DNA from: Theileria orientalis strain Shintoku
Lineage: Eukaryota; Apicomplexa; Aconoidasida; Piroplasmida; Theileriidae
Assembly (NCBI RefSeq): GCF_000740895.1
Contig: NC_025262.1
Location: 488,001-552,000 of the forward strand
Length of the DNA: 64,000 nucleotides
Direction: 5' to 3'
The translations under genes and the position numbers were made by a program. Position 1 is the first letter of the stretch. Each line of letters starts with the position of its first letter. Of this stretch, positions 37,951-64,000 are shown piece after piece. The notes beneath the pieces are model-generated. The model was not told the origin of the DNA and searched no databases. It saw only the letters and a program-made list of their open reading frames with translations.

Positions 37951-38033
37951 GCACGGATGCCCGAGTGGTTAAGGGGGGAGACTTAAGATCTTCTGGTTTG
38001 ACGACCGCGTGGGTTCGAACCCCACTCCGTGCA
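37951..38033 (+). tRNA. tRNA-Leu (anticodon UAA)
   Basis: 83-nt cloverleaf. The acceptor stem GCACGGA (37951-37957) pairs with TCCGTGC (38026-38032), with discriminator A at 38033. The D arm contains GCCCGAGTGGTTAAGGGGG with the GG of the D loop (A box). The anticodon stem GGAGA/TCTTC encloses loop CTTAAGA, anticodon TAA, hence Leu (UUA codons). A long variable arm follows, as expected of type II tRNA-Leu. The T arm has the B-box sequence GGTTCGAAC. No intron. A Pol III terminator TTTT follows at 38039-38042. Confidence 0.97.
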
Positions 38034-59803: not shown

Positions 59804-60057
59804 TTTGTGGGAGGGTTTGCAAAGTCCCGTATTCACTTTAAACTCTATCTTTTCTCTGGACACTGCATGGTTTAAAATATTATTAATTTAATATATTAAA
59901 TGTTTGTGCCAATTAGTTAACTTGGTTTCGTAAAAAAATTCACACCACAACAACTGGCCTTATGGCATACTTGCTCCTGACAGGCTAATGTTGCCAACTG
60001 GCGGTGGTGCTAAATATTAACATTGTGCCTACTTGATATACCCATAAATATGAAATA

Positions 60058-60328
60058 TCACGAGTGGGTCCTGGTGGGAATTGTGCCTATTGTTACGGAC
60101 CTTGCAAACCTGCCGTCTGCCAGACGCTAGAGCGCCGGCTATTCTCTGCTCTGTTGCCAGCCTGGAGCGTTACACCGGGCCACACCCGCCGCGAGCTCCG
60201 ACTTACATCGAGGCCCTCGGCAGACTCTAGCGCATCGCAGACAGGCTTGCTCGATCCGGCGCCAGACGCAGACCCTCATGTCCGCACTCGTGCCCCCAAA
60301 GTTACAGCAATAAGCCGGGCAACCTCAG
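60058..60328 (-). ncRNA. Signal recognition particle RNA (7SL/SRP RNA), candidate
   Basis: A GC-rich island in an AT-rich intergenic region. Read on the minus strand it shows SRP RNA landmarks in the right order. (1) Alu-domain U-turn motif TGTAAC (60306-60301) between short stems. (2) Long helix 5 arms: 60285-60292 pairs with 60059-60066 (8 bp), 60238-60242 with 60115-60119, 60225-60232 with 60125-60132 (8 bp). (3) Helix 6 hairpin CGAT-GTAA-GTCG (60210-60199) with the GNAR tetraloop recognised by SRP19. (4) Helix 8 CCAGGCTGGCAACAGAGCAG (60165-60146), closely matching the human CCAGGTCGGAAACGGAGCAG that binds SRP54. Ends are estimates. SRP targets nascent secretory proteins to the ER. No T-run is seen immediately downstream; the first long T-run on this strand is near 59930-59940. 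Confidence 0.82.
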
Positions 60329-60750
60329 TGTATTACTATTTGTGTGGAGTGAGACATTTTCTAAAAAAGGGGAACCACCCCATCATAACTATTTCCGTTG
60401 TTATATTTTCATCAAATTGGCATTTATATTAATATTTTTATAAATTAATTAATGTAAAATGGTTTAATTTATGTCTTTAATATGTTATGTTCTAATTAAA
60501 TTATTTTTGTTATTACTTTTTATTTTTATTACACACATATTGTATTCATTTTCCTTCCATACATTATCTTAATTCATATACACATTATTCATTTATTTAA
60601 TACATATTCAATAGTTTTACGTATACATGTATTGAATATTTTATAAATTATACATTAATAAGAGGGTTTCTACCAACTATCTCCGTATCGTTTCTCACCC
60701 TGTCCTTATTATTCCTGTATTATCATTAATATTTGTCATTGTAACTGCGG
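60329..60750. other. Intergenic region between SRP RNA and STI1
   Basis: About 420 bases, AT-rich from 60400 on. Its left part should hold the SRP RNA promoter (minus strand) and its right part the STI1 3' UTR. No frame or further RNA is recognised. Confidence 0.5.
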
Positions 60751-63227
60751 CTATATATCTATTACGCTATTTTTCCAATGCTTTTCTTCATTACTATTTA
60801 TATTCTCCAACGTTCCCTTACCGGCTGCTATTAACTTTTCCACTGCCTTTGCTATCTTCGGGTCCTTCATGTACTCCGATACACATGATGGGTTTTCTGC
60901 CAGTTTCCTCAGTATGAGTTGGAACTGCGGGTCTCCCATGATTTGCTGCACTTCTGGGTCCGACATTGCCTGCTTGTATTGCTGTTCGTCCACTTCGCTG
61001 CTTTTGTTCATCTCTTGAATCTTGGCCATACACTACACATTATTTATGTTTATTTATAGGTATAACAACGTTTGTTTTTGTTTGTGATTTCTATTTCTAA
61101 TTTTACGTGTTTACCTAGCTAAAATACTATTCACATCTTTCTAACTGATTGCACAACTATGCTTATGAGAACAACCAATCATCTATCTGCACATTATACT
61201 CACGTTGTATTTTCCCTGTAGACAGTCCGGACTCTGGGCATCGATGTTGAGCCCCTTGTCGTATGCGTCCATTGCCTTGTGGTACTCCTTCATGAGCACG
61301 TGCAGGTTCCCTTTGCGTGCCCATGCCTTTACAAAGAGTGGATCCAATTCCAATGCTTTGTTACAGTCCTATACATAATTTATAATCCGAGTTATACAGC
61401 AGCTATCATATTTATTCAACTGAAAATGGTATCATTTTCTTGTTGCTTACGTTAAGTGCCGATGGGTATTCGCATAGCTTCAACAGTGCTGCCGCTCTGT
61501 TTGAGTAGAGTTTTGCGTCTTTCGGGTTCCTTTTGATTGCCTCATCGTATTCTATTTTATCATTAGTTTAATATATCTCATTTACGTTATATATAATATA
61601 TTGTGTTACTATATCTATGATTCTATGCGTATATATACAGTGTATACACATAATATTTTACTTTAAGTATATACTCTAATTAATTACTATATACTTATCT
61701 GTATATACACGATTAGTATATGTAACAATTACAACAATAAGAATAATAAAAACAACAATAACTAATAGATGTTGTTACCTTTCTTTGCTTCTGGGAACTT
61801 GAACTCCTTAAAATACTCGTTTCCCTTCTCGCGATGCTAAAGTATCATTATCACCTGTTAACAATGGAACCAGCAATTCTATGTATACCATCATGTATTC
61901 ACAACGGTACTTATTGTTGTCCGTGTGTTTTCTTACTTGTTCTGCCAACTCCGGGTTAATGTACGCCTCTCTTTCCTTCTTGTCCTTCAGCCTCTCGACG
62001 TCCTTCAGCAAACTTCTCGTCTGCCTCGTGTTGTTCTCTATCAGCGACTTCTGGTATGCCGATATTGCGTCGTCGTACTTTTCCATCTTCGTGTAGCAGC
62101 TCGCGAGCCTGTTGTAGATCTAAAACTCGTTGATCACTTGCGCCTCCAAAGTCTTACCTTTGACACGACTGTGAAGTCCGCCATCACGTCGTATCTTCTT
62201 TCTATTGCGTCGTTGCACGTCTTTACGCACTTTTCGTACTCTCCCATCTCCAGGTACACTGCTGCCTTATTGTTTTCTAGCAGCAGGTTTTCCGGGTCAA
62301 GTTCCGACGCTTTGTTGTACATCTCCAGCGCCTCTTCGAACTTCTTCTGCTTATACAGGTTATTTCCTTCCTCCTTTAGCTTATTTGCCTCCTACGTTCA
62401 AACGTTTACTCAATAAATTTACTTGTTGACTTGGCGTCAAATTCTCCTTAGGCTCCGATTTCTCCGGCTCCTTCGGCTTCTCGTATTGTGTTTCTCTCTT
62501 TTCGGTGGGCATGTTCATTCCCATCGATGCCATGAGCCCATCTCTTATTGCTGGATTCTAAAATCGTTTAATAGACACTTCAACTTACTGGGTCATTTAG
62601 TATCTGTTGCAATACACTTGGGTCGTGATTCATCCTTGCAAGTGTGCTTGCCAACTTTGACGCGTACTCCGGGTCCTCGCTCTGGTACTTCTGCAAGTTC
62701 GGGTTCTCCTGTATGAGCCTGGTCACCATCATCAAAGATTGCATATACTGATGCGAGACTAAATTTCCGTTATTTTTTGAACACGGTATTAGCGTATTTT
62801 AATAACTTACAGTCATTTTCCACATCGTATAGTGCCTTTTTCAATGCCTCGTTTTCGGGGTCAAATTTTAAGCCTGTGTAATATTTTACTACTGGGTTAC
62901 GGGCGAATTACCTAATTTATATGTTTCTTTCGCTGCTTCGTGGTTTCCCAGTTTATATTCGCACAGCCCCTTTCTGGAATATCCCTAAATTGCCAATTTT
63001 AGTACACATCGTCTTACCTTTGGCCAATCCGGCTTCAGTTCTATGCATTTGTTTGCATCTGACAAGGCTTCCGTGTACATAGACATAGAGGCGTATGCAC
63101 CTGACCTATTTGAGTACAGCACGTGGTCGTTTGGGTTCAATTCAATAGCCTTCGTGAAAAAATCTGCTGCCTCTTTGAAGTTTCCTGCCTTGAAGGCGTT
63201 GTTCCCCAACGTCTTTAAATCAATCAT
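60751..63227 (-). CDS. Hsp70/Hsp90 organizing co-chaperone STI1/HOP
   Basis: Multi-exon gene (about ten exons) from ATG 63225-63227 to TAG 60751-60753, roughly 560 residues. TPR1: [76 protein letters not shown]1-type DP1 segment: [20 protein letters not shown] with [12 protein letters not shown]2[52 protein letters not shown]2[63 protein letters not shown]2: [48 protein letters not shown]. The carboxylate-clamp Lys/Asn/Arg residues occur in each TPR. The protein links Hsp70 to Hsp90 in the cytosol (established). The tail after the DP2 core ([17 protein letters not shown]) is longer than the usual ending and looks lineage-specific. Confidence 0.95.
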
Positions 63228-63406: not shown

Positions 63407-64000
63407 CTATTTTAGATTTGTATTTATAAAGCTATATACAAATCCTAACAGATTATCCATTTCTATGGAATCTCTTATCTTTTGAAACAGTGCTTCGTAC
63501 ATCCATAAATTATGACTTGATAGTATTATTTCTGCGCTCATTTCCTTACATTTCAAGAGGTGGTGGACGTAAGACCTAGATTCCTTCCTGATTGAAATTT
63601 CGTGGAGTCGTTTGTCCAGCTGGCTATGGTACACACTATCATTTAAATCTATATACGAGTTTATATTGTCCTTATAAACTCCATCTTCGAACTCACAGTT
63701 TTCATTTAATATCTGGAGCAGTGACTCTAAGTCTATATCCTCTTCGGTTTCTTCTGGTATATTGAAACACAGCGCTCTTCCTTCGCTGGATAGAGTCTCT
63801 GGATGTGGTGATATAACAACGTCTACTCCGAGGAGAACAGCGTGTAAAATTTCAATGGCAGTTCCTGTATTTAGTTGTATGACCCTCAGCTTTTCGTCAC
63901 TTGTTCCTTTTAACATTGCTTTAATCATTTCCGCTCTTTCCTCTAAAGATTCCCCGTATCCTAGTCCAGATAGTTCAACTCCGGGATATATATCGTCCTT
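63407..64000 (-). CDS. tRNA-guanine transglycosylase family, QTRT2-like (5' part beyond window)
   Basis: Open on the minus strand from 64000 down to TAG at 63407, 197 residues of the C-terminal part; the start is outside. Family match: YPGVELSGLGYGESLEERAE, RVIQLNTGTAIEILHAVLLG (GxxxPxEVLxAVxxGVD in the family), SSEGRALCFNI and YVHHLLKCKEMSAEIILSSH NLW-type end (TRAYIHHLLxxxEMLAxxLLxxHN). The zinc motif CxCxxC just before YVHHLL is replaced by HEISIRKE, with no cysteines, although the final zinc His (SSHN) is kept; and the catalytic FDS aspartate position reads VIS. So this is likely the non-catalytic partner subunit (QTRT2) or a degenerate enzyme. QTRT1/QTRT2 put queuine into tRNA wobble position 34 (established). 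Confidence 0.8.
   Translation of the reverse strand, partial: KDDIYPGVELSGLGYGESLEERAEMIKAMLKGTSDEKLRVIQLNTGTAIEILHAVLLGVDVVISPHPETLSSEGRALCFNIPEETEEDIDLESLLQILNENCEFEDGVYKDNINSYIDLNDSVYHSQLDKRLHEISIRKESRSYVHHLLKCKEMSAEIILSSHNLWMYEALFQKIRDSIEMDNLLGFVYSFINTNLK

What the first reader, a model, noticed from the sequence alone, without database searches (positions are those of the whole stretch)
60058..60328. GC-rich island with SRP RNA landmarks on the minus strand
Several independent features coincide on one strand and in the canonical order: a TGTAAC Alu motif, three long-range complementary segments forming helix 5, a GTAA-capped helix 6 hairpin, and a helix 8 segment that lines up with human SRP RNA (CCAGG..GG.AAC.GAGCAG). 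The SRP54 tetraloop appears as GGCA rather than GGAA, an unusual variant. A naive annotation would call a 122-residue protein here on the plus strand.
Basis: partly seen in the sequence, partly recalled or inferred. Interest (0 to 1): 0.82.

Follow-up and report, generated by a model that had tools for sequence, protein, structure and literature searches.

The report
Theileria SRP RNA gene and promoter
The stretch is a cattle parasite's gene for the RNA scaffold of the signal recognition particle, a universal protein-targeting machine, and it appears to share an upstream control signal with the U6 splicing RNA gene.

Summary
Confirmed: the minus strand holds an SRP (7SL) RNA gene. Rfam Protozoa_SRP matches 60094-60311 with 102.2 bits (cut-off 65; E 1.6e-20 for the window), the only match found in the 9.01-Mb genome. 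That genome also gives partial, exon-wise matches for SRP54, SRP19, SRP68 and SRP72 and a weak one for SRP14. It is probably a Theileria: a neighbouring protein is 85% identical to one of T. orientalis. T. annulata SRP RNA is already described, also as lacking helix 4 (PMC8137916): a new member of a known kind. Two reader details fail. The helix 8 loop is an ordinary GCAA tetraloop, not GGCA. The plus-strand frame has no ATG and no relatives. The RNA ends are best placed near 60320 and 60059. One addition: SRP RNA and U6 share TnTCACTCCA-N17-TGAGGTTG at their 5' ends; no other site in the genome matches within 2 mismatches. RNase P RNA lacks it. I read it as an external RNA polymerase III promoter. 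The literature searches made here showed no description of this element; that apicomplexan U6 genes have usable upstream promoters is known.

The parts
60059..60320 (-). SRP RNA gene, predicted mature extent (262 nt; ends inferred)
   Evidence: Protozoa_SRP 60094-60311, 102.2 bits; Metazoa_SRP model aligns end to end over window 60057-60319 (C3:548057-548319), but at 63.3 bits is below its cut-off of 70; 5' end by analogy with U6; 3' end by the distal helix 5 pair
60301..60306 (-). UGUAAC motif of the Alu domain (expected SRP9/14 site)
60285..60292 (-). helix 5, 5' distal strand CACGAGUG; only 8 nt lie between it and UGUAAC, so there is no room for helix 4
60059..60066 (-). helix 5, 3' distal strand CACUCGUG
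60186..60223 (-). helix 6 with GUAA tetraloop (60206-60203), expected SRP19 site
   Evidence: positions counted from the constrained fold
60134..60180 (-). helix 8 with GCAA tetraloop (60157-60154) and internal loop, expected SRP54 site
   Evidence: extent counted from the fold, in which the hairpin was forced
60345..60352 (-). TCACTCCA box at -32 to -25, shared with U6
60320..60327 (-). TGAGGTTG at -7 to +1, shared with U6 at the same spacing
60363..60372 (-). CCCCTTTTTT at -52 to -43; U6 has CTCCTTTTT in the same register (weaker shared feature)
59932..59938 (-). first T run of 4 or more downstream of the SRP RNA (T7), 121 nt past helix 5: candidate Pol III terminator

Best explanation
It is the SRP (7SL) RNA gene, the only one found, of a Theileria of the T. 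orientalis group, read on the minus strand from about 60320 to about 60059. The RNA has a long helix 5 with a reduced Alu domain (UGUAAC, a small helix 3, no helix 4) at one end and an S domain (helix 6 with GUAA, helix 8 with GCAA) at the other, and scaffolds SRP54, SRP19, SRP68/72 and probably SRP9/14 for co-translational targeting to the ER. Transcription is most likely by RNA polymerase III from an external promoter, TGTnTCACTCCA-N17-TGAGGTTG, that it shares with U6. Shown: the family match, the structure elements, the SRP protein matches, the shared sequence and its rarity. Inferred: protein binding, polymerase, exact ends, promoter activity, species.
For: Protozoa_SRP full-length match, 102.2 bits over a cut-off of 65, the only match found in 9.01 Mb. 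Landmarks in order on one strand. SRP19, SRP54 M domain, SRP68 and SRP72 over cut-off; SRP14 weak, its first exon readable by eye. Helix 4 loss is reported for T. annulata (PMC8137916 introduction). Shared U6 element: 0 of 5000 shuffles as good; 1 of 6604 real windows scores as high, and that is the SRP promoter itself, the next being 21 against 23; in the genome two 0-mismatch sites (U6 and SRP), none with 1 or 2, sixteen with 3.
Against: No expression data here. No other Theileria genome was available, so covariation and promoter conservation could not be tested. The Protozoa model ends at 60094 and pairs its outer helix 5 otherwise than the extension to 60059. The free fold of 60058-60328 prefers a structure without the helix 8 hairpin. 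No SRP9 match, though that search rang in no control either. SRP14 is below its cut-off. RNase P RNA, also expected from Pol III, lacks the element. SRP RNA has no T run of 4 or more for 121 nt after helix 5, whereas U6 ends in T8. The pattern was made from the two sites, so their own match is by construction.
Confidence: 0.95

Rival explanations
1. A plus-strand protein-coding gene occupies the island and the SRP likeness is chance.
For: A 131-codon stop-free frame covers it.
Against: No ATG in the frame; no homologue at E 0.001, 53 candidates scored; 79 of 2000 shuffles give stop-free runs of 122 or more; SRP model E 1.6e-20.
Confidence: 0.01
2. An SRP RNA pseudogene or secondary copy, with the working gene elsewhere.
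For: None beyond the habit of 7SL to leave copies in some genomes (recalled).
Against: It is the only match found, full length, with intact UGUAAC, GUAA, GCAA and helix 5, and with an upstream element shared with U6.
Confidence: 0.02
3. The sequence shared by U6 and SRP RNA is a chance likeness, not a promoter.
For: Only two genes carry it; RNase P RNA does not. The pattern was chosen after seeing both.
Against: Identical spacing and nearly the same position relative to two RNA 5' ends; 0 of 5000 shuffles; no genomic site with 1 or 2 mismatches.
Confidence: 0.06

Closest known systems
Protozoa_SRP, Rfam RF01856
   Same: Full-length match above the curated cut-off; helices 5, 6, 8 and UGUAAC present
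   Different: GCAA in place of the consensus GaAA loop; helix 5 can be extended beyond the model's 3' end to 60059
Theileria annulata SRP RNA (as described in PMC8137916; read: introduction)
   Same: Apicomplexan SRP RNA that completely lacks helix 4
Plasmodium falciparum SRP RNA (PMC8137916; read: abstract, introduction, NMR section, first of two parts of the discussion)
   Same: UGU motif; no canonical closed Alu domain
   Different: Plasmodium has extended H3 and H4 and an open Y shape; here H4 is missing, so an H3-H4 loop-loop pseudoknot is not possible
Type 3 (U6-type) RNA polymerase III promoters of animals and plants (passages of PMC1796607, and PMC9841428); U6 upstream promoters in use in Plasmodium and Toxoplasma (passages of PMC6859820 and PMC6795473)
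   Same: Elements lie upstream of the RNA; in animals and plants they are shared between different small RNA genes
   Different: The box at -32 is TCACTCCA, not TATA; a second box spans the start site; likeness to a PSE/USE or to the Plasmodium and Toxoplasma U6 upstream sequences was not tested

Membership tests
SRP RNA (Protozoa_SRP) | Covariance-model score above the gathering cut-off | tested here: met
   102.2 vs 65 bits
SRP RNA (Protozoa_SRP) | Helix 8 with GNRA-type tetraloop and conserved internal loop | tested here: met
   CCAGGCUGGCAACAGAGCAG aligned to the consensus, loop GCAA
SRP RNA (Protozoa_SRP) | Helix 6 with GNAR-type loop (loop rule recalled) | tested here: met
   GAU-GUAA-GUC
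SRP RNA (Protozoa_SRP) | Alu domain with UGU motif | tested here: met
   UGUAAC 60306-60301
SRP RNA (canonical eukaryotic) | Helix 4 and H3-H4 loop-loop pseudoknot | tested here: not met
   Only 8 nt between UGUAAC and helix 5; the same loss is reported for T. annulata, so it does not exclude SRP RNA membership
SRP RNA | Covariation across orthologues | not testable with these tools
   The genome search tool says this genome has no relatives here; the Rfam model is built from other members
SRP RNA | Presence of partner SRP proteins | tested here: met
   SRP54, SRP19, SRP68, SRP72 over cut-off as partial, exon-wise matches; SRP14 under cut-off; SRP9 inconclusive
SRP RNA | Expressed and bound in a particle | not testable with these tools
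   No expression data
Type 3 Pol III promoter | Upstream element shared among Pol III small RNA genes at fixed spacing | tested here: inconclusive
   Shared by U6 and SRP RNA, absent from RNase P RNA: 2 of 3 genes looked at
Type 3 Pol III promoter | TATA box near -30 | tested here: not met
   TCACTCCA at -32 to -25 in both genes; judged by eye on the aligned sequences

The most novel reading that the evidence does not exclude
Theileria drives its SRP RNA and U6 genes from a shared TATA-less external Pol III promoter (TGTnTCACTCCA from -36, then 17 bp, then a second box TGAGGTTG across the start site) unlike known PSE/USE-TATA promoters. It makes an SRP RNA whose Alu domain lacks helix 4 and cannot close by the loop-loop pseudoknot.
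Probability: 0.7. Interest if true: 0.4.

Novelty: new member of a known kind. Interest (0 to 1): 0.27.

Why it matters
The RNA is an ordinary, essential gene, so its value is mainly annotation: it places the SRP RNA, gives better ends, and removes a false protein. The shared U6/SRP element is more useful. A 2007 study of RNase MRP RNA saw likely TATA boxes in Plasmodium and Cryptosporidium but could not predict PSE or DSE elements there (PMC1796607, passages). [quoted passage not shown] A defined motif with exact spacing makes the question of apicomplexan Pol III promoters testable in other piroplasm genomes.

Tried and rejected
Downstream RNA: 60010-59939 (minus strand) folds with a 7-bp closing stem just before T7 and looked tRNA-like, which was tempting because a tRNA-like molecule is suggested to make up for a poor Alu domain in T. 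brucei (PMC8137916). It is the most stable of 86 72-nt stretches that precede a T run of 6 or more in the window, both strands, but it does not beat dinucleotide shuffles (39 of 200 as good, z -0.8), ARAGORN finds no tRNA with four option sets, and Rfam finds nothing even at E up to 10. Left as a lead only.

Upstream hairpin GGGG-TGGTT-CCCC-T6 (60363-60381): the stretch 60363-60430 does not beat shuffles (154 of 200 as good), and 60340-60620 has no Rfam family (one CRISPR-repeat match on the other strand at E 2.9, under its cut-off). Its C and T part lies in the region that resembles U6.

RNase P RNA (RF00009, C1:899593-899804) was examined for the promoter element: the best place has 7 mismatches of 17 at the fixed spacing and 6 when the spacing may vary; negative. 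Its 5' end was taken from the model start. The sixteen 3-mismatch sites (L014-L029) hold no Rfam gene at gathering cut-offs, and the reversed-pattern control gave 16 sites against 18; the sixteen are background.

BLAST of the RNA against plasmids gave nothing. Paper searches for SRP RNA in Theileria and protozoa. For an apicomplexan Pol III promoter shared by U6 and SRP RNA: 1 listed; 19 listed; 3 listed; 0; 0. Of those listed I opened four, by term passages only; the rest I saw only in the listing. None of what I saw described the element. The library holds open-licence papers only. The 2004 comparative study of protozoan SRP components (recalled) is not held. That plant 7SL genes use U6-type promoters is recalled; one search found no held paper for it.

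Full report
What was checked. The island is real: 61.6% G+C, against 41.8% and 25.4% in the 500 bases on either side, and the top 8 windows of that length (taken every 5 bases across the 64 kb) all start here. A scan with all 4227 Rfam families gives Protozoa_SRP (RF01856) on the minus strand at 60094-60311 with 102.2 bits, cut-off 65, over the whole model (1-228), E 1.6e-20 for the full window. The stretch 60058-60328 folds better than 200 of 200 dinucleotide shuffles (z -3.1); for 60059-60320, 1 of 200 base-composition shuffles folds as well. Genome-wide the same family gives this one place only (31 of 162 candidates were scored), and a DNA search with the gene and its flank finds no second copy. 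The metazoan model is weaker, 63.3 bits and under its own cut-off of 70, but aligns end to end over window 60057-60319.

Anatomy. In RNA order: UGUAAC (60306-60301); helix 5 with the distal 8-bp pair CACGAGUG/CACUCGUG (60292-60285 with 60066-60059); helix 6 with a GUAA loop (60206-60203); helix 8 with CCAGG-CUGGCAACAG-AGCAG. The free fold of 60058-60328 pairs up UGUAAC and does not form the helix 8 hairpin. Forcing that hairpin and an open UGUAAC costs 8.7 kcal/mol there, and 2.0 of 118.4 kcal/mol over 60059-60320. The distal helix 5 pair lies outside the Protozoa model's match, which ends at 60094 and pairs its outer helix 5 otherwise; 122 of 5000 shuffles give as long a perfect pair. Only 8 nt separate UGUAAC from helix 5, so helix 4 is missing and the loop-loop pseudoknot of canonical Alu domains cannot form. 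Soni et al. 2021 (PMC8137916; I read the abstract, introduction, NMR section and first of two parts of the discussion, and term passages) state that T. annulata completely lacks helix 4, so this feature is known in the genus.

The protein alternative. The plus-strand frame 60037-60432 is open for 131 codons, has no ATG, and has no relative at E 0.001 among 53 candidates. Stop-free runs of 122 or more in any frame occur in 79 of 2000 shuffles of the stretch. It is best seen as a by-product of G+C content.

The organism and the particle. The neighbour at 63407-64000 (minus) is a queuine tRNA-ribosyltransferase-like protein; the only database hit at E 0.001, among 94 candidates, is 85% identical and named T. 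orientalis. The genome has 9.01 Mb in 6 contigs, four of them of 2.0-2.7 Mb. I infer a Theileria of the T. orientalis group. The flanking frame at 60751-61029 has an STI1/HOP DP domain. Partner proteins were found as partial, exon-wise matches: SRP19 (49.5 bits, positions 1-48 of 95), SRP54 M domain (32 and 29.6 bits in two pieces, one with a stop inside), SRP68 (67 bits, positions 3-314 of 565 with seven stops inside, as introns would give), SRP72 (33.8 bits). SRP14 is under its cut-off (23 of 27 bits), but its first exon reads as an SRP14 N-terminus (judged by eye). SRP9 gave nothing, in a search that rang in no control genome either, so it says nothing.

A shared upstream element. U6 snRNA was found once, at C2:927027-927132 (99.1 bits; 47 of 711 candidates scored). 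Its upstream DNA and that of the SRP RNA share TGTnTCACTCCA, 17 mostly unlike bases, then TGAGGTTG, and less clearly a C-rich/T5 stretch 12 bases before TGT. The U6 model begins at the last G of TGAGGTTG, which puts TCACTCCA at -32 to -25. By analogy the SRP RNA starts at 60320 (GCCCGGC...), one base from where the metazoan model begins. Controls: no shuffle of 5000 gave as many bases in shared runs. With windows placed by the Rfam model starts alone, 1 of 6604 real windows from the 64 kb and 23 fetched loci reached the U6-SRP score of 23, and that one is the SRP promoter; the next scored 21, in L015, whose stretch shares no box as a whole (seven loci that hold U6 or SRP were left out). In the whole genome 18 places match with up to 3 mismatches: two with none (U6 and SRP RNA), none with 1 or 2, sixteen with 3; the reversed pattern gives 16. 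The sixteen hold no Rfam gene at gathering cut-offs. The pattern was drawn from the two sites, so the information lies in the coincidence of position and spacing and in the gap between 0 and 3 mismatches. Against a general Pol III role: RNase P RNA (74.7 bits) has no such element. So it is either specific to U6 and SRP RNA among these three, or RNase P has another promoter type.

Ends. U6 ends in T8. The SRP RNA has no run of four or more T until T7 at 59938-59932, 121 nt past helix 5. Either the transcript carries a trailer that is trimmed or termination differs. The stretch before T7 can fold, but not better than shuffles.

How it works. Shown: an SRP RNA by model and structure elements, the only one found, in a genome with SRP protein matches. 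Inferred from the family: it scaffolds SRP54 and SRP19 at helices 8 and 6, SRP68/72 at the junction, and SRP9/14 at UGUAAC, for targeting of nascent secretory proteins to the ER. With no helix 4 its Alu end must act, if it slows translation at all, without the canonical closed fold; an open fold of another form is reported for Plasmodium. Inferred: Pol III transcription from the external element shared with U6.

Novelty. SRP RNA of Theileria is known, and Protozoa_SRP is listed once among highly conserved elements found by comparing Alveolata genomes, a set that includes T. orientalis; the passages do not say in which species it was found (PMC5028923, passages). The gene is a new member of a known kind. 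Upstream U6 promoters are in use in Plasmodium and Toxoplasma (PMC6859820 and PMC6795473, passages), so an external U6 promoter as such is no surprise. The element itself, and its sharing with SRP RNA, was not seen in what searches listed; most of those papers I did not open. A 2007 paper on RNase MRP says PSE or DSE elements could not then be predicted in Plasmodium and Cryptosporidium, though TATA boxes looked likely (PMC1796607, passages).

Noticed in passing
60345-60352 and 60320-60327 (minus); U6 at G000:C2:927132-927166: SRP RNA and U6 share TnTCACTCCA-N17-TGAGGTTG at the same distance from their predicted 5' ends; no other genomic site within 2 mismatches.
   Followed up: yes
59932-60010 (minus): A 72-nt stretch with a 7-bp closing stem directly before T7 downstream of the SRP RNA; not better than shuffles, no Rfam or tRNA match.
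   Followed up: partly
60169-60174 (minus): A second UGUAAC lies in the 5' strand of helix 8; may be chance.
   Followed up: no
L005, within the SRP54 gene: A long TATTGT simple repeat lies in what looks like an intron of SRP54.
   Followed up: no
37951-38033 (+): tRNA-Leu (TAA), the only other Rfam match at gathering cut-offs and the only ARAGORN gene in the window.
   Followed up: no
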